This document shows positions 3,652-22,463 of a DNA stretch of 25,406 bases, piece after piece. Position 1 is the stretch's first letter. Each line of letters opens with the position of its first letter. Under the pieces are notes generated by a model. The model saw only the letters and a list, made by a program, of their open reading frames with translations. It searched no databases and was not told the DNA's origin. The stretch is from a virus. The stretch spans positions 1-25,406 of IMG/VR virus record IMGVR_UViG_3300009481_003825. One strand, written 5' to 3'. The position numbers and the translations under genes are program-made.

Positions 3652-4896
3652 ATGCTGGATTTAGATTTCAACAGAAGAGATTTTCTTAGAGTTGGCGGAA
3701 TTGGAGCAGGATTGAGCGTTCTACCCTTCTCTGACGAGGCGTTTGCGGAAGAGTTTGTTCTCCCAAGCCAAAAGTCAGTGGTGTGGGTATGGCTAGGCGG
3801 AGGCCCGACACAGTTCGAGACCTTCCACGCTCCCACAGAGGCAGTCCCAGACACCCACAGGCCAGTAACTGGCAAGGTAACCCATAAGAACGGGTTGGCT
3901 TTTGGTGGTTTATTTAAAGAATTAATTAAACAGGGTGACCATCTTACTGCCGTAAACTCTTTCTCTCACGGAGACTCTTCTCACAGGCAGGCCACACACT
4001 GGATGATGACCGGTCATCGCAATCCTAAGAGAGAGAATACTGCTGACTCTGAATATCCGGGTCATGGAGCTATTGCCTCTGCGGTATTTGGTTCTAACCA
4101 TCCAACAAATGGTATGCCAGCCTACGTAAAACAAGGCAAGATTGAAGGTGAACAGCCAACATTTTTAGGCGGGGCACATAAACCCTTTGATCCGTCCAAC
4201 AAGGATAACTTAACGCCTAGAATTCCTATTGCTCGCTTTGAGGAAAGAAAAGGCCTGCTAAGCTCTCTGGATAGTCTAGACAAGATTCGCTCTAAAGATG
4301 CGGATTCGTTTACCAAGATTGGCAACACTGCGTACAATGTTATTCTTGGAAATGCCAAGGACGCTTTCGATCTCGACCAAGAACCTGAAGCCATGCGGGA
4401 AATGTATGGTAAGGGAGGCATTGGTGATCAGATGTTGCTGGCTCGCAGGCTTGCTCAATTTGGCACCAAGTTCGTTACGGTTCACTACGGTGGGTGGGAC
4501 ATGCATAGCAATATAAAGAATGCGCTAGAGGGTAAGATCCCCCCTCTTGACAAGGCTCTTTCTTCCTTTGTTAAGGATATATACCAGAGCGGCATGTCTG
4601 AAAATACACTGTTGGTAGTTACGGGTGAGTTTGGAAGAACCAGACTCAATGGCAATTCTGGGCGTGACCACTGGCCTTCGATTACCCCCATGCTGCTATC
4701 TGGTGGAGCATACAACCATGGTCGGGTTATTGGCAAAGCGGACAAAGCTTACGTACCAACCGAAGACAAGGTTGGGCCAATAGACGTAGCAGCCACCCTG
4801 TTTGATCACTTCGGTATCCCCAAGGAAATCCAAAGAACAGATCAGGGCGGAAGACCTAGATACCTATTAGAGGGAGAAGGAAAGGTTATACTATAA
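3652..4896 (+). CDS. DUF1501 protein, paralogue 1, Tat-exported
   Basis: Member of DUF1501, an uncharacterised family with a fold assigned to the alkaline-phosphatase/sulfatase superfamily; no activity is proven. The N-terminus is a twin-arginine signal: NRRDFLRVGG (R8, R9), a hydrophobic stretch and a possible AFA/E cleavage site near residue 32. Family signatures: LGGGPTQFETF (49-58), GGWDMH (D283, H285), GEFGRTR (E326-R331) and GRDHW (H340). Two positions differ from the other copies: the GGP block has E56 where copies 3 and 4 have D, and R331 replaces the usual proline after FGRT. AGGAG at 3641-3645 serves ATG 3652. It is the first of four copies on the same strand; paralogue 2 starts 1 nt after its stop. 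Confidence 0.93.
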   Translation: MLDLDFNRRDFLRVGGIGAGLSVLPFSDEAFAEEFVLPSQKSVVWVWLGGGPTQFETFHAPTEAVPDTHRPVTGKVTHKNGLAFGGLFKELIKQGDHLTAVNSFSHGDSSHRQATHWMMTGHRNPKRENTADSEYPGHGAIASAVFGSNHPTNGMPAYVKQGKIEGEQPTFLGGAHKPFDPSNKDNLTPRIPIARFEERKGLLSSLDSLDKIRSKDADSFTKIGNTAYNVILGNAKDAFDLDQEPEAMREMYGKGGIGDQMLLARRLAQFGTKFVTVHYGGWDMHSNIKNALEGKIPPLDKALSSFVKDIYQSGMSENTLLVVTGEFGRTRLNGNSGRDHWPSITPMLLSGGAYNHGRVIGKADKAYVPTEDKVGPIDVAATLFDHFGIPKEIQRTDQGGRPRYLLEGEGKVIL

Positions 4897-4897
4897 T

Positions 4898-6154
4898 ATG
4901 TTAAGAAGATCTTTTTTACAGGCGGGAGTGTTGGGGGGATTGGGAATATCCTTTGCGAGGGGCGACCAAAAGTTTTACGAGAGCAAGGAGGGACCGGCTA
5001 AGAGTGTAATCTTTATATACTTGCCCGGAGGAATGGCTCATCAAGAGACGCTAGACCCGAAACCACTTGCCCCCATTGAGTATCGTGGGCCTTTGGGTAG
5101 TATTGAGACTAACGTTCCCGGTACTAGGCTTGGTGAGCTTCTTGTCAATACGTCTAAGATTGCTGATAAGATATCAATTATCCGCAGCATGACTCATGGA
5201 GAAGCCGCTCATGAACGTGGAACACACAACATGTTCACGGGTTATCGCCCCAGTCCAGCACTTCAGTACCCATCTATGGGTTCCGTTGTCTCGCATGAGT
5301 TCGGGCCTAGGCACAACCTTCCACCGTATGTATGCATACCTAACCAGCCAAACGAATACGCTGGTACAGGCTACCTAAGCAGCTCTTACGCAGGTTTCGC
5401 TTTAGGTTCTGATCCGGCTAGTTCAAATTTCCAAGTTCGTGATTTGAAAACTCCAGTGCCTGCCCCGAGATTCAGCCGTAGGCAAAGAGTTCTTGATATA
5501 GTTAATACAGACTTTAATTCCAAACAATCCGCAGACTCTATTGATGCAGTCAACTCATTCTACCAAAGGGCGTACAGCCTGATAGGTGATGTCAAAGCTA
5601 GTGAGGCGTTTGATCTCAATAAAGAACCAGATCAGTTGCGAGATAAGTATGGAAGAAATACCGCTGGAGCCAGAATGATACTAGCAAGAAGACTAGTAGA
5701 GGCTGGCACTAGATTTGTAACTTTAACATATGGTGGCTGGGACATGCATAACAATATAGCGGGAAGCATGAAGAGCCAGTTACCAGCTTTTGACAAGGGT
5801 TTCTCAACACTCATAGAGGACTTAAGCGATAGAGGTATGCTTGACTCCACATTAGTATGTGTTGTTTCTGAGTTTGGACGAACTCCAAAGATCAACGCCA
5901 ATGCTGGCAGAGACCACTGGCCTAAAGTATTCAGCACAATTATTGCTGGCGGTGGAATTAAAGGCGGGATGACATACGGCACATCCAACGCAACCGCTAG
6001 TGAGCCAGAAGAAAACCCAGTCAACATAGAAGACTGGGCATCTACTATTTACGATAGACTTGGTATAGTTTCTGACAAGGAGCTAATGGCTCCCGGTGAC
6101 AGACCGATAGAGATCGTGGACGGTGGAAAAGTTATCGCAGATTTAATTATGTAA
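4898..6154 (+). CDS. DUF1501 protein, paralogue 2, Tat-exported
   Basis: Second DUF1501 copy (418 aa). A short Tat signal starts almost at once, MLRRSFLQAG (R3, R4), followed by a Gly/Leu-rich core; the cleavage site is unclear, perhaps after the SFARG region. Signatures: YLPGGMAHQETLDPKP (41-56), the form closest to the family consensus, a HERGTHNMFTGYRP block, GGWDMH (D282, H284), SEFGRTPKIN (E325) and GRDHWP (H340). It retains the ETLDPKP segment, which is altered in the other three. It starts 1 nt after paralogue 1, so the two are probably co-translated. The function is unknown; a periplasmic hydrolase is only an inference from the superfamily. Confidence 0.94.
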   Translation: MLRRSFLQAGVLGGLGISFARGDQKFYESKEGPAKSVIFIYLPGGMAHQETLDPKPLAPIEYRGPLGSIETNVPGTRLGELLVNTSKIADKISIIRSMTHGEAAHERGTHNMFTGYRPSPALQYPSMGSVVSHEFGPRHNLPPYVCIPNQPNEYAGTGYLSSSYAGFALGSDPASSNFQVRDLKTPVPAPRFSRRQRVLDIVNTDFNSKQSADSIDAVNSFYQRAYSLIGDVKASEAFDLNKEPDQLRDKYGRNTAGARMILARRLVEAGTRFVTLTYGGWDMHNNIAGSMKSQLPAFDKGFSTLIEDLSDRGMLDSTLVCVVSEFGRTPKINANAGRDHWPKVFSTIIAGGGIKGGMTYGTSNATASEPEENPVNIEDWASTIYDRLGIVSDKELMAPGDRPIEIVDGGKVIADLIM

Positions 6155-6167
6155 AAGGAATATAACC

Positions 6168-7454
6168 ATGCTAACCTTGTCCCGAAGAAGCTTTTTGACA
6201 GTTGGCGGTCTTGGCATGTTATCAATGCCTCAAGTCATGTACGCACAGGATAGGCTGGGAACATCACACAAAGCTGTGATTAACATCTTTCTAGGTGGAG
6301 GCCCACCGCATCAAGACATGTGGGATATTAAAACAGAAGCCCCGTCAGAGGTAAAGGGGCCTTTCAAACCAATCTCAACCGCTGTAAATGGAATCCAGAT
6401 AGGAGAATGCTTCCCTAAGATAGCCTCTATGTTTGATAAGTTCACTGCTATCAGGTCTATAGTTGGCTCTGACGGTAGTCACGACGGACATCAATGCGTC
6501 ACGGGCTGGAGCAGAAAAGAGATGGTTTCCGGTACGAGCTACCCAGCCATTGGAGCATGCGCATCTAAAATTCTAGGCCCAGTTGACCCAGCCGTTCCAG
6601 TAGCTGTTGGTTTAGCGGATAAGACTCAGCACGGACCTTGGTCTGAAGCTGGCGGAGCTGGATATCTAGGGGAAACACATAAGCCCTTCAAGCCCAACGG
6701 CGAAATGATGAAAGACCTCAAGCTTAATCTTGATGTAGATAGATTTAGAAGCCGAAAAGATTTACTCGCCGGTTTCTCCAGCGTAAGGGAAACTATAGAC
6801 AAGGCAATAGCTACTGACACGTTTACAGAAGAAGCTTTTGGTGTATTGACATCCAGCGCTCTGGTTGACGCCTTAGATATTTCCAAAGAAAACCCAAAGA
6901 TAAGGGAAATGTACGGCGATGGAAAGCCGTTTAAATTTCAGTATGATGGAGCGCCCACTGTTAACGAGCATGTCCTCATGGCCCGCAGGCTTGTTGAAGC
7001 TGGCGCTAGGTCTGTTACGTTATCTTATGGTCGCTGGGATAGCCACGGATCAAACTTCGACCTCGTAAGAGATCATGGTGCAAAGCTAGACCAATGCGTT
7101 TCAGCCCTAGTAACAGATCTTGACAACCGTGGAATGTTAGACGACACGCTGGTTGTTGTTTGGGGAGAGTTTGGAAGAACACCTAAGATTAACAAGGGCG
7201 GTGGACGAGACCACTGGCCTCAAGTGTCATGTGCCCTTCTTGCTGGCGGCGGTTTCAACCATGGTCAAACCATTGGGGAAACGAACAGGCTTGGCGAAGT
7301 TCCAGAATCAAGACCCGTACATATCCAAGAGGTGTGTTCCACAATGTATCGCGCTCTTGGTATTGACACAATGTCAACCACCTTATTAGACAGAACCGGA
7401 AGGCCTCAGTACCTATTGGATCACAGAGAGCCAATCAAGGAACTTGTCAGTTAA
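6168..7454 (+). CDS. DUF1501 protein, paralogue 3, Tat-exported
   Basis: Third DUF1501 copy (428 aa, the longest). The Tat signal reads LSRRSFLTVGG (R6, R7) with a likely MYA/QD cleavage near residue 26. Signatures: FLGGGPPHQDMWDIK (41-55), DGSHDGHQCVTGWS, GRWDSH (D291, H293; Arg replaces the second Gly seen in the other copies), GEFGRTPKIN (E334) and GRDHWP (H349). It carries a roughly 8-residue insertion before the ARRLVEAG helix (GAPTVNEHV region) relative to copies 1 and 2. AAGGAA lies just upstream in the 13-nt gap after paralogue 2. Copies 1-4 align through the core but clearly differ along their length, so they are old paralogues, not a recent tandem duplication. Confidence 0.94.
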   Translation: MLTLSRRSFLTVGGLGMLSMPQVMYAQDRLGTSHKAVINIFLGGGPPHQDMWDIKTEAPSEVKGPFKPISTAVNGIQIGECFPKIASMFDKFTAIRSIVGSDGSHDGHQCVTGWSRKEMVSGTSYPAIGACASKILGPVDPAVPVAVGLADKTQHGPWSEAGGAGYLGETHKPFKPNGEMMKDLKLNLDVDRFRSRKDLLAGFSSVRETIDKAIATDTFTEEAFGVLTSSALVDALDISKENPKIREMYGDGKPFKFQYDGAPTVNEHVLMARRLVEAGARSVTLSYGRWDSHGSNFDLVRDHGAKLDQCVSALVTDLDNRGMLDDTLVVVWGEFGRTPKINKGGGRDHWPQVSCALLAGGGFNHGQTIGETNRLGEVPESRPVHIQEVCSTMYRALGIDTMSTTLLDRTGRPQYLLDHREPIKELVS

Positions 7455-7484
7455 AAATATAATAGCAGGAAGGTTACAATATCA

Positions 7485-7853
7485 ATGAGACCTAACAAAA
7501 AGCAAAAATACCTTGATGCCATAGAGGATCATGTCCAAAAACATAAGAGCAAGTCACACGAAGCTGGCTCGATGGAGGACTATGTATTCACATCAAAGGA
7601 AGAAGCTGACAAGATGGCTGAAAAAATCGGCCTCTCTGGCAGTCACTCCCACAAGAGTGGCGATGGAAAAACATTATACATGCCGGGCAAAAACATGGAA
7701 GAATTCCAAGACTGGTATGAAGAACACGGTGCCAAGGCGGCATTCAAATACGAAAACCCTAGGACTGGAGAAGTGTTCACTTACCGTAGAATGGGTAACT
7801 ACAAGAAGGATGGGGTTTCTCTAGTTTATAAAGGCAAGGCTGACGAAGTATGA
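7485..7853 (+). CDS. Small protein of unknown function inside the DUF1501 cassette
   Basis: A 122-aa soluble, charged protein without signal peptide or membrane segment, so it probably stays in the cytoplasm, unlike its neighbours. I do not recognise the family with certainty. Visible features: a basic N-terminus (NKKQKYLDAIEDH), an EEADKMAEKIGLSGSHSHK segment followed by GDGKTLYMPGKNMEEFQDW, which reads as a compact unit with a His-containing turn, and a C-terminal beta-like stretch (GEVFTYRRMGNY). SHSHK/YMPG-type units occur in small uncharacterised phage proteins as far as I recall, which is weak support. CAGGAAGG upstream serves ATG 7485. It overlaps paralogue 4 by ATGA (stop 7851-7853, start 7850), so the two genes are translationally coupled. 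Confidence 0.75.
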   Translation: MRPNKKQKYLDAIEDHVQKHKSKSHEAGSMEDYVFTSKEEADKMAEKIGLSGSHSHKSGDGKTLYMPGKNMEEFQDWYEEHGAKAAFKYENPRTGEVFTYRRMGNYKKDGVSLVYKGKADEV

Positions 7854-9061
7854 TTTCTAGACGTGGATTTGTTTCAGGGCTTGCTTCGCTTCCCTTTGTG
7901 GATATACTGCAAGCTAGGTCTGAGGAGATTAAAAAGAAGAGGAAGTCTGCCATCCTGCTATGGATGGGCGGTGGCCCTTCTACTATGGACATCTGGGATT
8001 TAAAGCCCGGAGCAACAACTGGCGGTCCTTTCAGGCCCATATCCACCACCGGCGATTTGCAGATATGTGAACACATGCCTATGATGGCCAAACAGATGCA
8101 CAATGTATCTGTAGTTAGGAGCATGAGCACACGGGAAGCTGACCACATGCGTGGTAGGTATTACATGCATACGGGTTATGTTCCAAATCCACGCATGGAA
8201 CACCCAAGCTATGGGTCAGTAATATCTAAACAGATTCAGAGAGACGACCTTAAGATTCCTCAGTTCATTTCAGTGAACGGGGCTAGCGTTGGAGCTGGGT
8301 TCTTGGGTTCTCAATACTCCCCCTTTGTTGTAAACAGTGATGGTAGAGTCAGAAATCTAGATATAAAAGTAGACGAAAGATTCTACCAAAGGATGTACAC
8401 TCTAGATCTCATAGAAAATAATTTCATCAATTCCAACAGAGGGTCTCTACCAAAAGAGCATCAGAAGGTATTGAGGAAAGCGTTTGATGTACTTACCAGC
8501 CAACAGATGGATGCTCTAAAAGTTTCTCAGGAGCCTAGCGAAGTTCTTGAAAGATACGGAGACAATAGCTTTGGTAAGGGTTGCCTAATGGCTAGGAGAC
8601 TTGTAGAAGCTGGAGTCCCATTTATAGAGGTTGGCTTCGGCGGCTGGGATAATCATCAGAATATTTTCAGTACATTACGTGATAACAAGCTCCCTATACT
8701 AGACAGAGCCATGAGCGCTTTGTTTGAAGATTTAGAACAGAGGGGCCTGCTAGAAGATACAGTTGTTCTATGGATGGGGGAGTTTAGTAGAACCCCTAGA
8801 ATCAACCAGAATACCGGTAGAGACCACTGGGCAAGGAGCTGGAGCGTGGCTCTGGGTGGTGGAGGCATCAACGGCGGCTTAGCAATAGGTGAGACCGACA
8901 AAAATGGAACAACTGTAGAGACCGAGCCGCATACCTCACAGGACATCATGGCTTCCGTATGTAAATGCTTAGGGATATCCCTAGACACCACATTCACAAG
9001 CAACAGCGGAAGACCAATGAGGATAGCAAATTCAGGACATGTAATAAGTAAGTTATTCTAA
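7850..9061 (+). CDS. DUF1501 protein, paralogue 4, Tat-exported
   Basis: Fourth DUF1501 copy (403 aa, the shortest). Tat signal ISRRGFVSGLASLPF (R4, R5) with a possible LQA/RS cleavage near residue 22. Signatures: WMGGGPSTMDIWDLKPG (38-54), the ADHMRGRYYMHTGYVPNP block, GGWDNH (D267, H269), GEFSRTPRIN (E311; Ser replaces the second Gly of EFGRT) and GRDHWA (H326). The start codon lies in the stop of the 122-aa gene (ATGA). Core motifs are intact, so it is presumably functional. As in the other copies, no DUF1549/DUF1553, the usual genomic companion of DUF1501 in Planctomycetota, is next to it. Confidence 0.94.
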   Translation: MISRRGFVSGLASLPFVDILQARSEEIKKKRKSAILLWMGGGPSTMDIWDLKPGATTGGPFRPISTTGDLQICEHMPMMAKQMHNVSVVRSMSTREADHMRGRYYMHTGYVPNPRMEHPSYGSVISKQIQRDDLKIPQFISVNGASVGAGFLGSQYSPFVVNSDGRVRNLDIKVDERFYQRMYTLDLIENNFINSNRGSLPKEHQKVLRKAFDVLTSQQMDALKVSQEPSEVLERYGDNSFGKGCLMARRLVEAGVPFIEVGFGGWDNHQNIFSTLRDNKLPILDRAMSALFEDLEQRGLLEDTVVLWMGEFSRTPRINQNTGRDHWARSWSVALGGGGINGGLAIGETDKNGTTVETEPHTSQDIMASVCKCLGISLDTTFTSNSGRPMRIANSGHVISKLF

Positions 9062-9466: not shown

Positions 9467-11110
9467 ATGGAATGGTCTCCCATTCATAACTATACGCATT
9501 ATAGTTTACTAAAAGGTTTCTCTAAACCAGAACAGCTCGCAAAGAAGTGCTCAGAAAACGGGTACAAGGCTTGCGGCATAGCTGACTATAAATCTATCTC
9601 AGGAGCAGTGTCTTTCTATCAGGCCTGCAAGAAGCATAATATCAAGCCGATTATTGGCTGTTCCTTTGACAGCTACACGTTGATCGCTAAGAATAAAGAC
9701 GGCTGGCTGAACCTAATCGAGATAGTGTCTCTGCTTGACGAAGATGGCAACATCCCGTCAGAGCTTTCTTACAAGGTCTTTCAAGAGGGAAATCTTATCT
9801 GCATAGCGGATAAGTATTACCCCATTCTAGGTAAAGACTCCTATGTTACGTCCCCAGCACTAAGCCCAACTTATTATTGCGACAAAGAGGATGCCCCTCT
9901 GCATAGAGTGCTACTGTGTTCATACCTGAAGACAACGCTCCCCAAGGCGAAGAAAAGCCTGAAGTCTGGCGATTTCGATCCGACATTTGAGAAGTTCTTT
10001 AGTCATGAAACTTTTCACTTACCGGATAGACGTGAGGTGACAGAGGTACTATTAGACGAATGTTCAGATGAACAGATAAATTCCGTCATAGAAATAGTTG
10101 AGAAATGTGAAGAGTATGATATACTCAGTAAACCTATGCTGCCGGAGTTTCCAATACCTACAGGCGAAAGCGAGGAGGATCTGCTGAAGAGTCTTTGTCG
10201 AGAGGGTTGGAAGCAGTACTTGCTTGACTCTGGCAAGCTAGACTCTGAGGAATCTGAAGCTCATTACGCTGAAAGGTTTCGTGAAGAACTAGGTGTCATT
10301 AAAGAGGCTAACCTCTTCGGATACTTTCTTATTGTGTGGGATATTATACGCTTCGTAAACAGCGAGGGGTGGTTATCTGGTCCGGGTAGAGGGTCAGCAG
10401 CCGGATGCCTCATATCTTACCTAATGGGAATCACTAAGATTGACCCAATCGAATATGATCTTCTATTTGAAAGGTTCTACAACAGCGGAAGAAATACAGA
10501 AGGTCACATCTCGCTTCCCGACATTGACATAGACGTACCCGGAAAGAAGAGAGACGAAATCATAGATTACCTAAAAGACAAGTACGGTCACGAGAACGTT
10601 AGCCAAATGATTACCTTTGGTAGACTACAGGGGCGTAGCGCATTAAAGGAAGTTCTTAGAATAAATGAGGCATGCTCATTTGGAGAAATGAACGAGATCA
10701 CCAAGAGCCTCCCCAACGAGGCAGACATCTCAGACCAACTGCAAGAGATGGATGAAGAAGATAGATCTATCATTCGTTGGGCACTAATCAACAACCCAGA
10801 AGAACTCAGGGACTTCTGTTTTATAAACGACCACGGAGACCTAGATGGAGACTATGCAGAGTTCTTTGACCAAGCAATCAGAATGGAAGGAACCTTCAAG
10901 TCGCAGGGTAAGCATCCAGCAGGCGTAGTTATTTCCAGAGACAAGCTTAAGCTGGTATGCCCTATGGTTAAACAAAGGAACAAGGATGAAAAATTAGCTG
11001 GTCTGGAAATGTCTGACCTAGAAAGCTTGGGCCACGTTAAATTCGATGTTCTTGGTATCAACCTTCTCGATAAGATCATGAAAGTTAAGGATCTCATAAA
11101 CCAAACCTAA
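9467..11110 (+). CDS. DNA polymerase III alpha-type, N-terminal half (PHP-like plus palm/thumb)
   Basis: N-terminal half of a C-family (DnaE) polymerase, 547 aa. Residues about 5-200 align with the PHP domain (IHNYTHYSLLKG; GIADYKSISGA; IKPIIGCSF), but metal-binding His positions are changed: Tyr9 where LHNHT has its second His, and ADY where TDH is usual. The palm follows with SGPGRGSAAG (about 304-313) and LPDIDID (D354 and D356, equivalent to E. coli D401/D403). It also contains KHPAGVVIS and VKFDVLG with D527, equivalent to D555. All three catalytic Asp are therefore here. The protein stops 20 residues after D527, at the palm/fingers boundary; fingers and OB fold are encoded at 11795-13387. 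An in-frame TTG at 9446 exists, but ATG 9467 has the better spaced AAGGAA site and matches the usual PHP start. Confidence 0.93.
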   Translation: MEWSPIHNYTHYSLLKGFSKPEQLAKKCSENGYKACGIADYKSISGAVSFYQACKKHNIKPIIGCSFDSYTLIAKNKDGWLNLIEIVSLLDEDGNIPSELSYKVFQEGNLICIADKYYPILGKDSYVTSPALSPTYYCDKEDAPLHRVLLCSYLKTTLPKAKKSLKSGDFDPTFEKFFSHETFHLPDRREVTEVLLDECSDEQINSVIEIVEKCEEYDILSKPMLPEFPIPTGESEEDLLKSLCREGWKQYLLDSGKLDSEESEAHYAERFREELGVIKEANLFGYFLIVWDIIRFVNSEGWLSGPGRGSAAGCLISYLMGITKIDPIEYDLLFERFYNSGRNTEGHISLPDIDIDVPGKKRDEIIDYLKDKYGHENVSQMITFGRLQGRSALKEVLRINEACSFGEMNEITKSLPNEADISDQLQEMDEEDRSIIRWALINNPEELRDFCFINDHGDLDGDYAEFFDQAIRMEGTFKSQGKHPAGVVISRDKLKLVCPMVKQRNKDEKLAGLEMSDLESLGHVKFDVLGINLLDKIMKVKDLINQT

Positions 11111-11136
11111 TTTTGTAACTAACAGGAGACTTTGAA

Positions 11137-11814
11137 ATGTCTAATAAAGACATAATTGTATTTGATTTTGAAACTGGTTCTAGAAACCCACACAAAACCC
11201 AACCAACCCAGCTAGCCGCCATAGCCTTAGACGGTAGAAACTTGCGCCTAAAGGGTACGTTCAACAGCGAGATCAGGCCAATTCTCAGCGAGAAGAAGGC
11301 GATTGAAGCGGGAGTAGATCCTGTTGAAGACGAGGCTCTTCGTATCACAGGCAAGACCAGAGAGGCTCTAAAAAAAGCCCCGACCATCAGGTCTGTGTGG
11401 AAGAAGTTTGTACAGTTTGTTGAACAGCATAACTGGAAGGGAACCTCATGGTTTGCCCCAATCCCCGCTGGGTTTAACATCATCGGGTTTGATATGGTTA
11501 TCATCAATAGGTTATGTAAAGAGTACGGACCTTACGATAACGACAGGTGTCAGCAAAAGTTGTTTAACCCCATCTTCAAAATAGATGTTATGGATAATGT
11601 ATTCATGTGGACTGAGGGAGACCCATCTATCAGATCTATTAGCATGGATTCTCTTCGTGACAGGATGGGGATGAGTAAGGAGAATGCGCATGACGCGCTT
11701 CAGGATGTTAAGGATACTGCTAACATCATGATTAAATTCATGAAAACACATAGAGCAGTATACCAAAATTTGAGCTTAGATAAGGCATTTGCAGATGGAA
11801 ACTCTTATATCTAA
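11137..11814 (+). CDS. DEDDh 3'-5' exonuclease (DnaQ-like proofreading subunit)
   Basis: RNase H-fold exonuclease, 225 aa, probably the proofreader for the split polymerase that flanks it. DEDDh residues are visible: D10-F-E12 in VFDFETGS (Exo I), D119 in IIGFDMVII (Exo II), and H185 with D190 in AHDALQDVKDT (Exo III). AGGAG at 11124-11128 serves ATG 11137. The gene sits between the two polymerase halves: 26 nt after the N-half stop, and its last 20 nt overlap the C-half start. This layout implies coordinated production of three subunits. The degenerate PHP domain of the N-half makes a separate exonuclease functionally sensible. An oligoribonuclease role is less likely given the context. Confidence 0.92.
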   Translation: MSNKDIIVFDFETGSRNPHKTQPTQLAAIALDGRNLRLKGTFNSEIRPILSEKKAIEAGVDPVEDEALRITGKTREALKKAPTIRSVWKKFVQFVEQHNWKGTSWFAPIPAGFNIIGFDMVIINRLCKEYGPYDNDRCQQKLFNPIFKIDVMDNVFMWTEGDPSIRSISMDSLRDRMGMSKENAHDALQDVKDTANIMIKFMKTHRAVYQNLSLDKAFADGNSYI

Positions 11815-13387
11815 AGAAAGAACTGGGATAGACTACAACTCTCCAGAAACTTGGAGTCTCTTTAGTGAGGGAAAAACAAAAGGAATTTTCCAGCTTGAGA
11901 GCAATCTAGGTAGATCTTGGTCGAAGAAGCTTAAGCCCACAAACATAGAGGAGCTAGCAGCATTGATAGCCCTCATCCGACCCGGATGCTTAAAGGCTAT
12001 TCAGGACGGCAAGTCTATGACCCAGAGGTACATTGATCGCAAGAGGGGCATAGAAGAGGTAACTTATTTAGATGAGTCTCTTGAGGAAATACTTAAGCCA
12101 ACCTATGGAGTGCTTGTATACCAAGAACAATCCATGCGTATAGCCCAGAAAATTGCTGACTTCAACCTGCAAGAGGCAGACGTTTTACGAAAAGCTATCG
12201 GTAAAAAGAAGGCTGGCCTCATGGCCCAAGTAAAAAAGTCCTTTCTAGAGGGCGCTGAAAGCAAAGGGTTGGTTACCAGCGAAGTCGCTGAGGAAATCTT
12301 TAGTTGGATTGAGAAGTCCTCCAGATACTCTTTTAATAAGTCACACGCTGTTGCTTATGCAATGTGTTCTTACTGGAGCGCATATTACAAAGCCACGAAC
12401 ACCAGTGAGTTCTTCCTATCCTACATGTACTATGCCAACGAGAAGCAGAACCCGCATGAAGAGATATACGAACTTGTATCCGAAGCCAAGCTATTTGACC
12501 TAGAGACCAAAGCTCCGAACATCACCAACTTTGCTGAGAAATTCAACATAAGAAATGGTAAAATCTACTTTGGCATCAAAGATATCAAGTCACTCGCAGG
12601 AAAGACTGGAGACAAGGTGCTTGTGGCGGTACAGGCACTGAAAGACAATCTAGGAAAACCGCTGAAAGACTTGAGCTGGATGGAGATACTTGTACATTTC
12701 TCGCCAACTGTAAACTCTACAGCGTTCAAAGCCCTCTGCTCAGTAGGATTCTTCAGAGGATTCAGCGATAAGATTACCAGAAACCAAGCTCTGTATCAAT
12801 ACAATATATACAGAACCCTGACGAAGGCGGAAGTCAAATGGGTTACTGAGAACTACCCAAAGAAAAGATGGAAGACCCTAGAAGATTGTCTTAAAGATCT
12901 GGCACCCTTAAAAAAGGAAGGCGGCGGCACGCATCGTGTAGACAGAAGTCAACTCATACTCAATGAGTTAAGCTTACTACAAAATCCTCCTTACGACCTA
13001 AACGATGATCCGGGCTGGGTTATTGACCAAGAAACTAAACTGCTTGGATGTCCCATAAGTATGTCTAAGGTGGAAAGTTCGGATACCTCAGCGGCCAACA
13101 CAACATGCAAGGAAATAGTTAATGGCAAGACTGGATCAGGCCTATGCATATGCGTACACGTCAAGAGGGTTTCAGATTACCGCATAACTAAAGGCGACTC
13201 AAAGGGTAGGCAAATGGCGTTTCTCACGGTAGAGGACGACACATGCTCACTTGATAGTGTAATAACATTTCCAGACACCAGAGATAAACATAAGTATATA
13301 TTATACGAAGGCAACAATCTAGTGCTATGCGGGTCTGTAGCAAGAAACGACAATTCTTTTATTGTTGATAAAATATATGAAATTTAA
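11795..13387 (+). CDS. DNA polymerase III alpha-type, C-terminal half (fingers, HhH, OB fold)
   Basis: C-terminal half of the DnaE polymerase, 530 aa. It begins with ETWSLFSEGKTKGIFQLES, matching the E. coli segment that leads to VFQLES. It continues through ALIRPG, LKPTYGVLVYQEQ, ADVLRKAIGKKK and YSFNKSHAVAYA, the fingers motifs. A helix-hairpin-helix-like stretch (about residues 305-335) and an OB fold near the end (GRQMAFLTVEDDTCSLDSVI) follow. It ends just after the OB fold, lacking the E. coli C-terminal tau-binding region. Joined to the N-half, nothing is missing or duplicated (547+530 aa). ATG 11795 has AAGG about 9 nt upstream inside the exonuclease gene; an in-frame TTG at 11789 is a less likely start. 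Confidence 0.92.
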   Translation: METLISKERTGIDYNSPETWSLFSEGKTKGIFQLESNLGRSWSKKLKPTNIEELAALIALIRPGCLKAIQDGKSMTQRYIDRKRGIEEVTYLDESLEEILKPTYGVLVYQEQSMRIAQKIADFNLQEADVLRKAIGKKKAGLMAQVKKSFLEGAESKGLVTSEVAEEIFSWIEKSSRYSFNKSHAVAYAMCSYWSAYYKATNTSEFFLSYMYYANEKQNPHEEIYELVSEAKLFDLETKAPNITNFAEKFNIRNGKIYFGIKDIKSLAGKTGDKVLVAVQALKDNLGKPLKDLSWMEILVHFSPTVNSTAFKALCSVGFFRGFSDKITRNQALYQYNIYRTLTKAEVKWVTENYPKKRWKTLEDCLKDLAPLKKEGGGTHRVDRSQLILNELSLLQNPPYDLNDDPGWVIDQETKLLGCPISMSKVESSDTSAANTTCKEIVNGKTGSGLCICVHVKRVSDYRITKGDSKGRQMAFLTVEDDTCSLDSVITFPDTRDKHKYILYEGNNLVLCGSVARNDNSFIVDKIYEI

Positions 13388-13475: not shown

Positions 13476-13793
13476 ATGAATCTATGTTCTTTTACAGGGT
13501 ATCTCGTCGAAGATCCCAAGCTATCCAAGGCTGACAGTGGAGTCAGTCGTGCAGAATTTACTCTCGTTACATATACATATAGAACCACCAAAAGCACCGG
13601 CGAAAAAAGCAGGATACCAACATACATAAGGTGTGAAGCTTGGCACACCGGAGCTGAAACCATAGGTAGCCTATTCAGCAAAGGTTCAAAGATACATGTT
13701 CATGCGACAGCAAAGAATTCCGCAAAGGGTAGTAGGGATGTAATATTCAGAGTTAACGAATTTGACACTACGGAACCCTTTGATCAGGAATAA
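13476..13793 (+). CDS. Single-stranded DNA-binding protein (small OB fold)
   Basis: Binds ssDNA at the fork. The 105-aa product is one OB fold of the bacterial SSB type: CSFTGYLVEDPKL matches the family start (xGxLxxDPxL), SRAEFTLVTYTY is the next strand, PTYIRCEAWHTGAETI corresponds to the wI-x-V-x-afgk-x-AE segment, and FSKGSKIHVHATAK to lxKGxxVxVxG. It is much shorter than E. coli SSB (178 aa). It lacks a linker and a DDDIPF-type tip, ending in EPFDQE, so partner recruitment by the C-tail may be reduced or different. It follows the polymerase genes and stands 3 nt before the glycosyltransferase operon. Confidence 0.85.
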   Translation: MNLCSFTGYLVEDPKLSKADSGVSRAEFTLVTYTYRTTKSTGEKSRIPTYIRCEAWHTGAETIGSLFSKGSKIHVHATAKNSAKGSRDVIFRVNEFDTTEPFDQE

Positions 13794-13796
13794 ATA

Positions 13797-15473
13797 ATGC
13801 GAAAAAAACGGATACTCTTCTGTAGCGAAGCTACGTTTCTGAACACGGGATACGCTACATATGCCAGAGAAACTCTTAAATACCTGCATTCTACAGGTAA
13901 ATATGAACTAGCAGAGCTGGCTAGTTACGGTGAACGGAGCGACCCTAGAGGACTCTCTCTGCCTTGGAAGTATTACGGTGTGCAACCAAACACAGAAAAC
14001 GAACCAAAGGGTACGCAAGAGGAGCACGACCAGTATAACTCTAGTCCCACTATGCAGTTTGGTGAACACATCTTTGAACATGTATGCTTAGATTTCAAGC
14101 CAGATGTTGTCTGTGACATTCGAGACTTTTGGATGCTCGACTTTGTTGAAAGATCTCCTTACAGAGGGTTCTTTAGGTGGGCTATCATGCCAACGGTTGA
14201 TGCTAGACCTCAAGCTCGCCAGTGGATAGCCACATACAGTTCAGCAGACGCCTGCTTTACTTACTCTGACTGGGCTGGTGGTGTGTTAGAAGATCAATCT
14301 GGTGGTAAAATCAACTACCTCGGATCGTCCCCACCCTCTGCCCATCCAGCATACGCGCCGGTAGAAGACAAGGATGCGCACAAGGTGGCTGTTGGCATCG
14401 ACCCGGACACCAAAATTATTGGCACCGTGATGCGTAACCAGAGGCGTAAGCTTTACCCAGACCTATTCGAGGCGTTCAAGAAATTTTTAGATAATTCGGA
14501 AGACAAAAACTATAAACTGTATTGCCACACAAGCTACCCAGATTTGGGTTGGGATATCCCAGAGTTACTACAAGAGTATGAACTTTCCTCACACGTATTA
14601 TTTACATATGTATGTAGACAGACAGGAAAACCATTCCCGTCCCTGTTCAAGGGGGCGGTAGCTCAGTCGCCCTTTACGGGTCAGTTTGGCTCTACACTCA
14701 CTAGCGTAAAGAATGGGGTTGAATACGAAGACTTAGCCGCCATAATGAATCTTTTTGATGTGTATGTACAGTACGCAAACTGCGAAGGGTTTGGACTTCC
14801 ACAGGTTGAAGCAGCAGCTTGCGGCGTGCCCGTCATGGGTACAGACTACTCAGCCATGGAAAGTGTTCTTAGAAAGCTCGAAGGGGTTCCAATCAAACCA
14901 AAGGCTTTATACAAGGAACTGGAAACAGGGTGCTTAAGGGCAGTTCCAGATAACGACTTGGCAGCACAAAAGTTTGCAGAGTTCTTTGAACAACCCAAGA
15001 GTGTTCGCAGGAAAATGGGCTTCAAGTGTAGGCAGGCTTTCGAGAAGTATTACCAGTGGGATATCAGCGGGAAGAAGTGGGAAAACTATTTTGATAGCGT
15101 TGAAATTATTCCCGAAGAGATGACTTGGAAGTCTCCACCAAGGATTAAAAACCCGGCACCCATGCCAGACCCTATTCCAGACAACGCCACCCCAGCACAG
15201 TTGAGTAAATGGTTAATAACAGATGTTCTTTGTGAACCTGAGCGGTTAAATACATACTTTGAGTCTAGACTGATTAGAGACCTCACGTATCACAGTACTA
15301 CGCAAACAACTGGAGGTATGTACTTTAATGAAAGTTCGGCAGCTTTTGAGGGTAAGAATGTTAGAAACCCATACAACCTTGAGATTGCCCACAACCACAT
15401 GTCAAACCTCTGTAATAGGAGAAATATGTGGGAGCAAAGAAGGTATGATCTCAACAATCAAGGAGTTGGTTAA
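13797..15473 (+). CDS. GT4-like glycosyltransferase with C-terminal extension
   Basis: GT-B fold glycosyltransferase, 558 aa, cytoplasmic; it would transfer a sugar from a nucleotide donor. The N-terminal Rossmann-like half opens RILFCSEATFLNTGYATYA. In the C-half GTVMRNQRRKLYPDLFEAF starts the donor domain, and CEGFGLPQVEAAACGVPVMG holds the E-x7-E pair E330/E338. Between them, about residues 270-300, is a CRQTGKP...AQSPFTGQFG insertion that reads like a zinc-ribbon that has lost its paired cysteines. Roughly 120 residues after the GT domain (Pro-rich link, then FNESSAAFEGKNVRNPYN) have no family I recognise. It overlaps the next glycosyltransferase by TAATG. Donor and acceptor are unknown. 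Confidence 0.85.
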   Translation: MRKKRILFCSEATFLNTGYATYARETLKYLHSTGKYELAELASYGERSDPRGLSLPWKYYGVQPNTENEPKGTQEEHDQYNSSPTMQFGEHIFEHVCLDFKPDVVCDIRDFWMLDFVERSPYRGFFRWAIMPTVDARPQARQWIATYSSADACFTYSDWAGGVLEDQSGGKINYLGSSPPSAHPAYAPVEDKDAHKVAVGIDPDTKIIGTVMRNQRRKLYPDLFEAFKKFLDNSEDKNYKLYCHTSYPDLGWDIPELLQEYELSSHVLFTYVCRQTGKPFPSLFKGAVAQSPFTGQFGSTLTSVKNGVEYEDLAAIMNLFDVYVQYANCEGFGLPQVEAAACGVPVMGTDYSAMESVLRKLEGVPIKPKALYKELETGCLRAVPDNDLAAQKFAEFFEQPKSVRRKMGFKCRQAFEKYYQWDISGKKWENYFDSVEIIPEEMTWKSPPRIKNPAPMPDPIPDNATPAQLSKWLITDVLCEPERLNTYFESRLIRDLTYHSTTQTTGGMYFNESSAAFEGKNVRNPYNLEIAHNHMSNLCNRRNMWEQRRYDLNNQGVG

Positions 15474-16606
15474 TGAAAGTTTTATACATAGGCCACTACA
15501 GGGAGTTTGGCGGTTGGTCTGACGCAGCCATCGGCCACATGCTTGCTATGGACACAGTTGGTATTGATGTGGTCGCAAGAAATATACCTTTAACCCAATC
15601 CCCCAGAGAGGATATTCCCAAGAAAATAGAACAGTTTGAAGGCAAGAGTCTTGAGGACTGTGATGTCTGTATTCAGCACGTTCTCCCTCATCACTTAATT
15701 GGAACTTCCGGCTTCAAGAAAAACATAGCCCTCCTTGAAAGCGAAAGCCTAAGCATCAAAGATAATGCTTGGTTCAACTACTTGCAGCAAATGGACGAAG
15801 TGTGGGTTCCGAACAGCGACCTTAAAAATATACTCACAAAGGACGGATTGTTTGAAGACAGTGAACGTATCAAGACCGTTCCGCACACCTGTGACCTAGG
15901 AAAATACAAGGCCCCCACTAAGCCGGTCTCCATAGAGGGTCTGGACGACAAGTTCAAGTTCTATTATATAGGAGATATGAACGACAGGAAAAACTTACGC
16001 TCACTCGTTAGGTGTTTTCACAGCGAATTTGACAGGTCTGAGCCAGTAGGACTAGTTCTAAAGCTTTGGAAATTCGGCCACTCACCACAACAAGTGCGTG
16101 AGCTAGCTGTCAACATGTGTAATCAAGTTAAGCAAGAATTAAGAATGTATAAGTCGATTGAGTCCTACCACACAGAATCTATTATATCAGAGCAGATTCC
16201 AGAGGAGGGGATTAGGGCGTTGCACCAGTATGGCGACTGCTTTGTTTGCCCATCTCATGGAGAGGCTTGGTCTATACCATCTTTTGACGCGATGTGCTAC
16301 GGTAAAACCCCAATATGTAGCAACTTTGGAGGCCCTAAAGAGTTCATAGGAACAGATCCAGACATAAATAAAGGGACTCTTGTTGAAGGGTTCTTTGATG
16401 TATGCGACTGCACCGACTCACCATTCCCCACATTGTTTACTGGGAGGGAGCAATGGTTTGACCCTAGCGAGGGAGGGATTAAAAGTGCTATGCGTTACTA
16501 TTACGAACAAAGAGACAAGATAGATAGGCAGGTAGGCATTGAAAGTGCGGAAAGGTTTTCTTACGAATCCGTAGGAAACTTAATGAAAGATTACCTTGGA
16601 GGTTAA
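15473..16606 (+). CDS. GT4-like glycosyltransferase
   Basis: GT-B glycosyltransferase, 377 aa. It starts KVLYIGHYREFGGWSDAAIG, a donor-type Gly-rich turn near the N-terminus. DEVWVPNSDLKNIL and VPHTCDLGKY mark the inter-domain region. KFYYIGDMNDRKNLRSLVRCF opens the second domain, and SHGEAWSIPSFDAMCYGKTPI is the nucleotide-sugar site. There the second Glu of E-x7-E is Asp (E264, D272), a conservative change. The stop of the preceding gene overlaps its start (TAATG), with AGGAG at 15461-15465. Working with the neighbouring GT it could build one oligosaccharide; the linkage is not predictable. Confidence 0.83.
   Translation: MKVLYIGHYREFGGWSDAAIGHMLAMDTVGIDVVARNIPLTQSPREDIPKKIEQFEGKSLEDCDVCIQHVLPHHLIGTSGFKKNIALLESESLSIKDNAWFNYLQQMDEVWVPNSDLKNILTKDGLFEDSERIKTVPHTCDLGKYKAPTKPVSIEGLDDKFKFYYIGDMNDRKNLRSLVRCFHSEFDRSEPVGLVLKLWKFGHSPQQVRELAVNMCNQVKQELRMYKSIESYHTESIISEQIPEEGIRALHQYGDCFVCPSHGEAWSIPSFDAMCYGKTPICSNFGGPKEFIGTDPDINKGTLVEGFFDVCDCTDSPFPTLFTGREQWFDPSEGGIKSAMRYYYEQRDKIDRQVGIESAERFSYESVGNLMKDYLGG
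16598..16603 (+). promoter_or_regulatory. Ribosome binding site fixing the ALDH start
   Basis: GGAGGT 4 nt before ATG 16608. A TTG at 16596 is in frame but lies before this site, so ATG 16608 is chosen. The site overlaps the last codons of the upstream glycosyltransferase, whose stop is at 16604-16606. Confidence 0.75.
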
Positions 16607-16607
16607 T

Positions 16608-18164
16608 ATGTATTTTACAAACTACGTTGGGAAAAATTTAATCGACGGAACTTGGTGGAACTCAGGCGGCGATGTCAAGAACACTAACCCCTGCGATGGT
16701 TCGCAAATAGGAGCCTTCCCGCAAACTCCATCACAGCAAATTAATGAAGCGTGTGAGGCAGCTAGAAATGCATCTGATGACTGGAGAGATCTCAGCAGGG
16801 TTAATAGAGCTGAATACTTATTCAGGGTTGCTAAGATCTTAGAAAGAGATCTAGATCAGTTTGCTACAGCTATCTCCCTAGAAACAGGCAAGAGTTATAA
16901 CGAGTCAATCGCAGAGGTTAACGAAGCCCTACACATGGCTCAGTATGCGTTTGGTACCGGCAGGATGCCTCATGGAGAAGCGTTGTCTTCTGAGATAGCA
17001 GAGAAGGACGCTTACATGCTACGGAAGCCGAAGGGTGTTGTAGCCATTATAAGCCCTTGGAATTTTCCTCTAGCTATTGGTGCATTCTGGTGTGCTGCCC
17101 CAGCTCTAGTAGAGGGAAATACAGTTGTAATCAAACCCAGTGAAGACGCTCCGCTTAGTACGGAGCTGGCTGTTAAGGCTTACGTAGAGGCTGGAATACC
17201 ACCGGGAGTTCTAAACCTCATCCATGGTGACGGTGAAGTAGGTGATGAGTTAGCGAAACATCCAGAGGTAGACCATATTTGCTTTACTGGCAGTGCCGAG
17301 GTTGGACAGCATATACGCAGAGTCTGTGCTGATAGCTGGAATAAGACATGCTCTTGCGAGCTTGGCAGCAAATCGGCTGTAATAGTTTTTGATGATGCCA
17401 ATTTCGACCTAGCAGTATCTGCCAGTATAGCAAGTGCATTTAAGCTTTCAGGGCAACGATGCGTGTCTGCTGGGAGGCTTATAGTACAGAGAGGAATTTA
17501 TGATCAATTTTGTGAAAGCTTTACTAAGTATGCAGGTCAGGTAGTTGCGGGTCAACCGTTTGATGAGCAAGCTACTGAAGAAAAAGATAGCTCTAACTTC
17601 TTCGCCTTTGGTGAGGGTAAATCTTCATTTGTAAGTCCTGTGGCAAACAGCTTAGCTTACATGGGGCCTCTAATTAATGAGCAGCAGCTTGAGAGAGTTA
17701 AGAGGTTCAATCAACTTGTAATCGAGGATGATATGGCAGAAGTGCTTGTTGAGCCTACCTATAAAGTTCCGGGAAACTATGCGTCACCAATGGTATATAA
17801 GACGGAATGGAGAGATGCTCCCTACCTAAAGCAGGAAGTTTTTGGACCACATGTTGCCATTATCCCCTTTGATACTGTTAATGATGCTGTCCACATTTAC
17901 AATGACACTGATTATGGATTGGCTGTTGGAGTAATTACAGAAGACTTTAAGAAAGCGAGGATCTGCCGTGATAACTGTGACTATGGTATGTGTTATTGGA
18001 ACGGTGGTAGTATTGCTGCTGAGTCGCACCTTGGATTTGGTGGAGTCAAGAAATCAGGAAATGGTTTCCCATCAGCGGCGAGAACCGTAAGAGCAGTTAC
18101 ACACGAGGTGGCTTGGACTGTTAATCACGACGAAAAACTTAGCTTTCCGCAGGGGATGGAGTAA
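16608..18164 (+). CDS. NAD(P)-dependent aldehyde dehydrogenase (ALDH superfamily)
   Basis: Oxidises an aldehyde to a carboxylate with NAD(P)+. The 518-aa product is full length and catalytically intact: SPWNFPLA, KPSEDAPLS, HICFTGSAEVGQ (nucleotide-binding region), CELGSKSA with E251 as general base, SGQRCVSAG with nucleophile C285, and EVFGP near the C-terminus. A roughly 25-residue stretch between about 305 and 345 (DEQATEEKDSSNFFAFGEGK) looks like a lineage-specific insertion. It is followed by the 54-aa membrane gene (TAATG overlap) and then by a saccharopine/lysine-dehydrogenase-like gene. That suggests, as inference, alpha-aminoadipate semialdehyde as substrate (an ALDH7-like role). Other aldehydes, including sugar-derived ones, cannot be excluded. 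Confidence 0.92.
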   Translation: MYFTNYVGKNLIDGTWWNSGGDVKNTNPCDGSQIGAFPQTPSQQINEACEAARNASDDWRDLSRVNRAEYLFRVAKILERDLDQFATAISLETGKSYNESIAEVNEALHMAQYAFGTGRMPHGEALSSEIAEKDAYMLRKPKGVVAIISPWNFPLAIGAFWCAAPALVEGNTVVIKPSEDAPLSTELAVKAYVEAGIPPGVLNLIHGDGEVGDELAKHPEVDHICFTGSAEVGQHIRRVCADSWNKTCSCELGSKSAVIVFDDANFDLAVSASIASAFKLSGQRCVSAGRLIVQRGIYDQFCESFTKYAGQVVAGQPFDEQATEEKDSSNFFAFGEGKSSFVSPVANSLAYMGPLINEQQLERVKRFNQLVIEDDMAEVLVEPTYKVPGNYASPMVYKTEWRDAPYLKQEVFGPHVAIIPFDTVNDAVHIYNDTDYGLAVGVITEDFKKARICRDNCDYGMCYWNGGSIAAESHLGFGGVKKSGNGFPSAARTVRAVTHEVAWTVNHDEKLSFPQGME

Positions 18165-18328
18165 TGGGTGTCTGGGCTTTAGTGATAGCCTTTTTATTAT
18201 ACCTAGTGGTATCAATAGATTTATGGTATAAAAAGAACTACGCCTTAGCTGTAGTGTTCCTGTGCTACGCTGTAGCAAATTTAGCATACATATGGGTAGG
18301 CGATTATCTCAAAGGAGGAAGCTCATGA
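18164..18328 (+). CDS. 54-aa membrane protein with two predicted helices
   Basis: A small gene in the gap between ALDH and dehydrogenase. ATG 18164 lies in the ALDH stop (TAATG) and its TGA (18326-18328) overlaps the ATG of the next gene (ATGA), so both ends are coupled; a GGAG-like site (18158-18161) precedes it. Residues 3-18 (VWALVIAFLLYLVVSI) and about 26-45 (NYALAVVFLCYAVANLAYIW) are hydrophobic, separated by a short charged loop (DLWYKK); it ends in GGSS. The hairpin topology resembles small holins and small membrane regulators, but no specific family is recognised. Exact stop/start coupling on both sides argues that it is a real gene. Confidence 0.72.
   Translation: MGVWALVIAFLLYLVVSIDLWYKKNYALAVVFLCYAVANLAYIWVGDYLKGGSS
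18313..18318 (+). promoter_or_regulatory. Strong ribosome binding site for the dehydrogenase
   Basis: AGGAGG 6 nt before ATG 18325, inside the last codons of the 54-aa membrane gene. It decides the start at 18325; an upstream in-frame start at 18262 would overlap most of the membrane gene and has no such site. Confidence 0.8.
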
Positions 18329-19344
18329 AGGCTGTAGTGATGGGAGCTGGACGTATGGGGCAAGCCATAGCTTGGTCTATGGATAAATTTGGGTATGAAA
18401 TATTTTTGGTTGATAACAATTCCAAAAACTTGTTTGATACTGAGTATGACTTTTCTAAGGTTTCTTTGATACACGCATCCTCTGAGGACTACTTCAACGA
18501 TAATGCTGACATTGTGATTTCCGCAATGCCCTACCATCAGAATTTCCACATAGCTAAAAAGTGTATTGAATCAAACGTCCCCTACTGTGATCTTGGCGGT
18601 AGCGTGCCTGTAAGCCGTCAGATCAACGAACTTGCTCGTCAAAAAGGGGCGACTGTAATAACAGACCTAGGTTTAGCTCCGGGATGGGTTAATATCATTG
18701 CTGAGGATGGAGCTGTGCAATCATCCCCAGAGTCAATTAAGATGATGGTTGGAGGGCTTCCCAAAAACCCCAACAACTACCTGAAATATAATTGCACTTG
18801 GTCATATGACGGGCTGATTAACGAATATAAAGACTCCTGTGAGGTTCTTGTAAATGGATTCCAGACAATTGTACAGGGAATGGAGGGTCTGGAACTTGTT
18901 GAGACTTCCCTAGGTGTGTTGGAAGCTTTCTATACCAGCGGAGGTGCTGCTCACAGTGTTTCATCTATGCAGGATAGGGGGGTTAAGAACTGCTACTATA
19001 AAACTCTAAGGTATCAAGGTCATAGAGACGCCATGAGATTTCTTATGTATGAATGCGGTCTTGATGGCGAAGACTTGAAGCAAGCTATAATTAAAGCATG
19101 CCCTCCGGCTGAAGATATTGTTGTTGTCCGTGTAGACGTAGACGGTACAGTTAGTGAAAAAATAGTCGAGAGTTGTGATAAGTTTAGTGCAATGCAAAAG
19201 GCTACGGCGTTTCCGATATCATCTGTCGCAGATCTGATTGGACACAGAATAATTGAAGGACCATCGTCTTACAAGGATGTACCATACCAAACATTTGAAT
19301 CGAACCTTAACCAACTTTTTAACGAGGTAAAAGATGCCGAATAG
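18325..19344 (+). CDS. Saccharopine dehydrogenase / lysine 6-dehydrogenase-like oxidoreductase
   Basis: NAD(P)-dependent amino-acid dehydrogenase, 339 aa. Residues 7-13 (GAGRMGQ) form the Rossmann Gly motif, preceded by KAVVM. The family hallmarks continue: ADIVISAMPYHQNFHIAKKC, VPYCDLGGSVPVSRQINELA and ITDLGLAPGWVNIIAEDGA, the last being the conserved catalytic-domain block shared by saccharopine dehydrogenase, lysine 6-dehydrogenase and carboxynorspermidine dehydrogenase. The C-terminal domain includes a GGAAHSVSSMQ turn. The usual product of the first two enzymes, alpha-aminoadipate semialdehyde, is a substrate for an ALDH, which is encoded two genes upstream. Start chosen by AGGAGG at 18313-18318; it overlaps the next gene by 11 nt. 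Substrate assignment within the superfamily is not possible by eye. Confidence 0.88.
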   Translation: MKAVVMGAGRMGQAIAWSMDKFGYEIFLVDNNSKNLFDTEYDFSKVSLIHASSEDYFNDNADIVISAMPYHQNFHIAKKCIESNVPYCDLGGSVPVSRQINELARQKGATVITDLGLAPGWVNIIAEDGAVQSSPESIKMMVGGLPKNPNNYLKYNCTWSYDGLINEYKDSCEVLVNGFQTIVQGMEGLELVETSLGVLEAFYTSGGAAHSVSSMQDRGVKNCYYKTLRYQGHRDAMRFLMYECGLDGEDLKQAIIKACPPAEDIVVVRVDVDGTVSEKIVESCDKFSAMQKATAFPISSVADLIGHRIIEGPSSYKDVPYQTFESNLNQLFNEVKDAE

Positions 19345-22457: not shown

Positions 22458-22463
22458 ATTTCT

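What the first reader, a model, noticed from the sequence alone, without database searches (positions are those of the whole stretch)
9467..13387. Phage DnaE polymerase split at the palm/fingers boundary with the proofreading exonuclease gene between the halves
The N-half (547 aa) has all three catalytic Asp (D354, D356, D527) and stops 20 residues after the third. The C-half resumes with the fingers segment leading to GIFQLES. Joined, they cover the family with no gap or duplicated stretch. The 225-aa DEDDh exonuclease lies between them and overlaps the C-half start by 20 nt. No intein or intron signs are visible: no Cys at the junction, no homing-nuclease motif, and the interposed frame is a complete separate gene with its own start and stop. 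The simplest reading is a three-polypeptide polymerase whose halves reassemble non-covalently. The gene order palm-exonuclease-fingers matches the places where the subunits would meet, which is uncommon among described C-family enzymes.
Basis: partly seen in the sequence, partly recalled or inferred. Interest (0 to 1): 0.82.

Follow-up and report, generated by a model that had tools for sequence, protein, structure and literature searches.

The report
Split viral DNA polymerase flanking its proofreader
A large family of uncultured aquatic viruses makes its only recognisable DNA-copying enzyme as two separate proteins cut between palm and fingers, always with the proofreading exonuclease gene between the two halves, so a bacterial-type replicase probably works there as a permanently two-piece enzyme.

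Summary
Window genes 9467-11110 (PHP + palm, 547 aa), 11137-11814 (DEDDh exonuclease) and 11795-13387 (fingers to OB fold) are intact. AlphaFold models of the two halves (pLDDT about 94) map onto E. coli Pol III alpha residues 4-575 and 575-1073, without gap or overlap. The split is no artefact. All 142 distinct related loci from the first searches have the order N-half, exonuclease, C-half. A later search started from the N-half found 69 more split loci and no continuous one. The split loci form one clade with full support against continuous bacterial and phage DnaE. All three genes are under strong purifying selection. In 24 long contigs (87-176 kb) no family A or B polymerase or second DnaE was found. 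No intein or intron was found at the junction, although inteins occur elsewhere in some relatives' halves. The likeliest mechanism is non-covalent reassembly of the halves with a separate proofreading subunit; assembly itself is untested. The two gaps are an insertion hotspot for unrelated genes, so gene order is not evidence of subunit contacts. Split phage Pol III has precedents; an ancient, fixed split around the proofreader appears undescribed.

The parts
9467..11110 (+). Polymerase N-half: PHP domain plus palm with all three catalytic Asp (D354, D356, D527), 547 aa; ends 20 residues after the third Asp
   Evidence: PF02811 and PF07733; invariant D354/D356/D527 in 81 sequences; AlphaFold pLDDT 94.3, maps to E. 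coli alpha 4-575, Z 29.3, rmsd 2.8 A over 501 residues; dN/dS 0.04 against L082
11111..11136 (+). Short intergenic stretch with AGGAG at 11124-11128, 8 nt before the exonuclease ATG; in relatives this junction often holds extra genes
   Evidence: gap contents
11137..11814 (+). DEDDh 3'-5' exonuclease, 225 aa, presumed proofreading subunit; lies between the halves in every related locus that holds all three genes
   Evidence: PF00929 and phrog_192; motifs FDFET, NIIGFD, NAHDALQDVKDT; order N-Exo-C in 142 of 142 distinct loci
11795..13387 (+). Polymerase C-half: fingers (GIFQLES, YQEQSM, FNKSHAVAYA) to C-terminal OB fold, 530 aa from ATG 11795 (alternative TTG 11789); start overlaps the exonuclease end by 20 nt
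   Evidence: PF17657; AlphaFold pLDDT 93.8, maps to E. coli alpha 575-1073 (5fku_A, Z 22.9); dN/dS 0.03 against L082; same 20-nt overlap in 43 of 139 loci
13476..13793 (+). Single-strand DNA-binding protein, conserved next-door gene (context, not part of the polymerase)
   Evidence: PF00436; present in 152 of the related loci searched

Best explanation
This is the probable replicative polymerase of a large, uncultured clade of phage-like viruses: a bacterial-type (family C, DnaE) enzyme whose gene was broken once, in the common ancestor, in the surface linker between palm and fingers, and has stayed broken. The N-half (PHP + palm, all catalytic Asp) and C-half (fingers through to the OB fold) are made as separate proteins. 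They most likely dock non-covalently to rebuild the normal DnaE shape, with the separately encoded DEDDh exonuclease as the epsilon-like proofreader. Shown: the split, its conservation, single origin, selection, complementary folds, and absence of another recognised polymerase in long contigs. Inferred: assembly, activity, and proofreading by this exonuclease.
For: Complementary ORFs and profile coverage. Complementary models with no overlap on E. coli, Taq and M. tuberculosis alpha. Order N-Exo-C in 142 of 142 distinct loci, N-half ending 15-34 residues after the third Asp. N-half-led search: 69 split, 0 continuous, 10 N-half only with no C-half in the fetched stretch. One origin, support 100, one change against 19 for shuffled labels. 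Low dN/dS for all three genes. One palm and one fingers gene and no family A or B polymerase in 24 long contigs; in one of them, L104, the palm gene is broken further. The C start overlaps the exonuclease gene, suggesting coupled translation.
Against: The contigs may be incomplete, so a second polymerase could be missed. Host and lineage are unknown.
Confidence: 0.87

Rival explanations
1. The halves are joined covalently by a split intein or another trans-splicing element not visible by eye.
For: Real inteins occur inside the halves of some relatives: L088 (complete, with HNH), L089 (split, at the FNK/SH site used by cyanobacterial split DnaE inteins), L104 (two sites).
Against: At the palm/fingers junction the N tails and C heads are short and variable in length, with no intein motif seen in any junction printed; no Hint domain in the window halves. 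The site is a variable linker, whereas the inteins found sit in conserved motifs.
Confidence: 0.03
2. The stretch between the halves is an intron carrying the exonuclease gene, and the mRNA is spliced to a continuous polymerase.
For: Phage polymerase genes do carry introns (PMC2993671, PMC10580990); endonuclease genes sit in these gaps in some relatives.
Against: No Rfam match in the window or in 7 other loci, nor a meaningful one at relaxed threshold over 10900-12100. Gap length and content vary widely, N and exonuclease starts are enriched for Shine-Dalgarno sites, and the C start overlaps the exonuclease ORF.
Confidence: 0.03
3. The split polymerase is not the replicase: the halves act separately or are decayed, and the virus uses host polymerase.
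For: Some large phages carry an accessory split Pol III beside another polymerase (PMC7824862).
Against: Catalytic and fingers residues invariant, strong purifying selection, no other polymerase in 24 long contigs, location in a helicase-primase-SSB block.
Confidence: 0.06
4. Assembly error or frameshift in the contig.
For: None found.
Against: Same break in all related contigs from many metagenomes, including a 98-99% identical separate contig (L082).
Confidence: 0.01

Closest known systems
Bacterial DNA polymerase III alpha (DnaE) with separate epsilon subunit (E. coli, Taq, M. tuberculosis)
   Same: Same domains in the same order, catalytic Asp, fingers motifs, OB fold; proofreading by a separate DEDDh exonuclease in E. 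coli
   Different: Two polypeptides instead of one; model of the C-half ends at E. coli residue 1073, so the C-terminal tau-binding part has no counterpart; exonuclease gene lies between the halves
Corynebacterium phage P1201 gp59/gp58 (NC_009816)
   Same: DnaE broken at the same palm/fingers linker (N-half profile to 535 in gp59, C-half profile from 8 in gp58)
   Different: Single genome; genes overlap by 29 nt with no exonuclease between; distant in sequence from this clade; sequencing frameshift not excluded
Cbastvirus (Cellulophaga phi13:1, Tenacibaculum Larrie) and Lactobacillus phage Maenad split DnaE
   Same: Phage DnaE annotated as two adjacent genes
   Different: Broken earlier, at about N-half residues 342-351 before the first catalytic Asp; no exonuclease between
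Split minimal Pol III alpha of group 2.2 jumbo phages (Iyer et al. 2021, PMC7824862)
   Same: C-family polymerase core in two proteins proposed to reconstitute an enzyme
   Different: Minimal core without the other Pol III domains, genes far apart, beside a family B polymerase
Phage polymerases interrupted by split inteins or other ORFs (MIJ3 PolB, PMC6892783; OM43 phage polymerases, PMC10580990)
   Same: Polymerase in two genes with another ORF between
   Different: MIJ3 is PolB with a split intein; the OM43 phage insert is a small ORF of unknown function, possibly an intron; here no intein or intron at the junction and the insert is the proofreader

Membership tests
C-family DNA polymerase (DnaE type) | PHP domain at the N terminus | tested here: met
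   PF02811 9.6e-20 in the N-half; in the window the first metal-binding motif reads H-N-Y, so the site looks partly degenerate (by eye)
C-family DNA polymerase (DnaE type) | Palm with three catalytic Asp | tested here: met
   PF07733 4.4e-70; D354, D356, D527 invariant in 81 sequences
C-family DNA polymerase (DnaE type) | Fingers domain and C-terminal OB fold | tested here: met
   PF17657 4.6e-48; residues 434-530 match OB folds and 1-530 match E. coli alpha 575-1073
C-family DNA polymerase (DnaE type) | Single polypeptide | tested here: not met
   Palm and fingers on separate ORFs in all 254 split loci collected; hence 'split variant', not an ordinary DnaE
C-family DNA polymerase (DnaE type) | Polymerase activity | not testable with these tools
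   Needs biochemistry
DnaQ/epsilon-like DEDDh proofreading exonuclease | RNase_T/DEDDh family with catalytic D-x-E, D, H-x4-D | tested here: met
   PF00929 6.4e-13; motifs seen in the nine diverse members printed
DnaQ/epsilon-like DEDDh proofreading exonuclease | Binds the polymerase | not testable with these tools
   No complex could be modelled
Split-intein ('fractured') gene | Intein halves at the break | tested here: not met
   No Hint/intein domain or motif at the junction, while the same tests do find inteins elsewhere in L088, L089, L104
Intron-interrupted gene | Group I or II intron core between the exons | tested here: not met
   No Rfam match; a divergent intron below detection is not strictly excluded
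Jumbo-phage split minimal Pol III (Iyer et al. 2021) | Lacks other Pol III domains, genes distant, PolB present | tested here: not met
   PHP and OB present, genes adjacent, no PolB found in 24 long contigs

The most novel reading that the evidence does not exclude
In this viral clade the DnaE replicase has become an obligate multi-subunit enzyme in which the exonuclease (and, in many members, a conserved small protein of about 60-90 aa encoded just before it) helps hold palm and fingers together, so proofreading and polymerase assembly are physically coupled, unlike any C-family polymerase I know of.
Probability: 0.2. Interest if true: 0.82.

Novelty: new variant of a known kind. Interest (0 to 1): 0.6.

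Why it matters
It is a natural, ancient and stable bisection of a bacterial-type replicative polymerase between the metal-bearing palm and the fingers. It makes two questions testable: can a C-family replicase work as separable palm and fingers subunits, and does the proofreader stabilise them. Two of the most conserved neighbouring genes have no match in the 50,697-record phage collection, so this is also the likely replicase of a large unsampled viral group.

Tried and rejected
Misassembly or frameshift: rejected, same break in every relative. Intein at the junction: none. Intron: no Rfam match. Continuous relatives inside the clade: none found by C-half or N-half searches. Cultured relatives: none for the glycosyltransferase or PDDEXK neighbours; best phage hits to the halves are about 30% identical. 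Searches with the most divergent member (L181) and the continuous L105 returned only their own contigs. Viral beta clamp: no PF02768 match in 24 contigs. Small ORF family before the exonuclease: no PDB match better than E 0.33 and no PHROG match of note. Literature searches for a split phage DnaE found only Iyer et al. 2021 for family C; the paper on fractured genes (PMC2677866) is not held. KLEB27-3 (L274), with an HNH gene between DnaE pieces, looks more like an intron case and was not pursued.

Full report
What is there. The window is a 25,406-base IMG/VR virus record. In its replication block (DnaB-like helicase, Toprim primase, deoxynucleotide kinase, PDDEXK nuclease, later SSB) lie three genes. 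The N-half, 9467-11110, carries PHP and palm. The exonuclease is 11137-11814. The C-half, ATG 11795 to 13387, carries fingers and the rest. The catalytic D354, D356 and D527 are invariant in 81 relatives, the third lying 20 residues from the end of the N-half. The C-half start overlaps the exonuclease gene by 20 nt, an overlap found at exactly this length in 43 of 139 loci.

Do the halves make one whole? Both halves gave confident models from alignments of 81 relatives (N: pLDDT 94.3, pTM 0.91; C: 93.8, 0.85). Aligned independently to solved structures, N residues 1-547 fall on E. coli alpha 4-575 and C residues 1-530 on 575-1073; Taq gives 5-638 and 636-1121; M. tuberculosis DnaE1 gives 8-607 and 607-933. 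The break therefore lies in the linker after the last palm helix, and nothing is missing or duplicated there. At the far C terminus the tau-binding part of E. coli alpha has no counterpart.

Is it conserved? Searches from both halves collected 254 split loci, 175 of them different near the junction. In the first set, all 142 distinct full loci have the order N-half, exonuclease, C-half. In the later N-half-led set 69 of 69 loci holding both halves are split, and 10 hold only the N-half, most of them cut off near a contig end. Identity of the N-half to the window falls to about 40%. Bacterial DnaE proteins from 78 genome contigs and the phage DnaE proteins used as outgroups are continuous at this point. 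In a maximum-likelihood tree of 70 concatenated sequences the 48 split ones form one side of a branch with full support, a single change (quick method without bootstrap). Two split loci come from genome assemblies (L186, labelled Flavobacteriales; L187, labelled Lokiarchaeota); these are probably viral contigs in bins, so they say little about hosts.

Is it functional? Against the near-identical contig L082, dN/dS is about 0.04 (N), 0.01 (exonuclease) and 0.03 (C); other close pairs also show dN far below dS. In 24 long contigs (87-176 kb) there is one palm and one fingers gene each, with further fragmentation in L104, and no family A or B polymerase was found. The contigs may be incomplete, but 24 concordant absences make the split enzyme the likely replicase.

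How could it be rejoined? Intein: no Hint domain or intein motif at the junction. The tests are able to find inteins: L088 has a complete intein with HNH in the fingers, L089 a split intein at FNK/SH, and L104 intein pieces at two sites. Intron: no Rfam match, and the gaps contain unrelated genes in relatives. That leaves separate chains that dock, which is inference until tested.

What about the gene order? The exonuclease is always between the halves, but the two gaps beside it also accept many other genes: small ORFs of about 60-90 aa (two families, 82 loci), EndoVII/HNH-type endonucleases, PDDEXK-like proteins, uracil-DNA glycosylases, methyltransferases and single cases, about 27 families in all. 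So adjacency cannot be read as a map of contacts. The epsilon-binding PHP domain lies in the N-half, by match to the alpha-epsilon chimera structures. Coupled expression of one core enzyme explains the order equally well. The endonuclease genes suggest, but do not prove, that mobile endonucleases helped to break the gene; this is inference.

What is known. Split phage Pol III is not new as such. Iyer et al. describe a minimal split version in some jumbo phages. Cbastvirus and Maenad break DnaE before the first catalytic Asp. PhunaPhoke has separate genes for the PHP part and the polymerase core. P1201 breaks it at the same linker as here, without an exonuclease, in one genome where a frameshift error is not excluded. 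What I did not find described is a whole clade with a fixed palm/fingers break enclosing the proofreader. The library searched lacks many subscription papers.

Verdict: real, functional by all computational signs, new variant of a known kind.

Noticed in passing
3652-9061: Four DUF1501 genes (PF07394; one further small ORF among them), a family I associate from memory with Planctomycetes, stand directly before the polymerase; copies at up to 97% identity occur in the same place in about 20 related viral contigs. Role in a virus unknown.
   Followed up: partly
13797-24872: Long run of glycosyltransferases, GDP-mannose-dehydratase-like epimerase, aldehyde dehydrogenase and a saccharopine-dehydrogenase-like gene after SSB; the first glycosyltransferase is kept in 163 related loci and has no match in the phage collection.
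   Followed up: partly
L089:8700-10120: Split intein at the FNK/SH site of the fingers (site of the cyanobacterial split DnaE intein) with a separate endonuclease-like ORF between the halves, so this polymerase would be three chains with two rejoined.
   Followed up: partly
L104:5971-12680: Palm gene further fragmented: intein pieces at GPGRG/SAAG, another break before the first catalytic Asp (same place as Cbastvirus), plus a mini-intein in the fingers. L103 shows a similar extra break.
   Followed up: partly
L088:8334-9293: Complete intein with HNH domain at RPG/C in the fingers (PF14890 over cut-off).
   Followed up: yes
L024:5116-5343 and about 60 loci; L154:4042-4218 and about 22 loci: Two unrelated small ORF families of about 60-90 aa between N-half and exonuclease, no known relatives; candidates for an extra polymerase subunit.
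   Followed up: partly
L276:1451-4811: Corynebacterium phage P1201 DnaE in two genes with the break at the same palm/fingers linker, apparently independent.
   Followed up: partly
L340:3983-9893: An N-half with nearly 4 kb downstream that holds neither the exonuclease nor the C-half; a longer insert or rearrangement.
   Followed up: no
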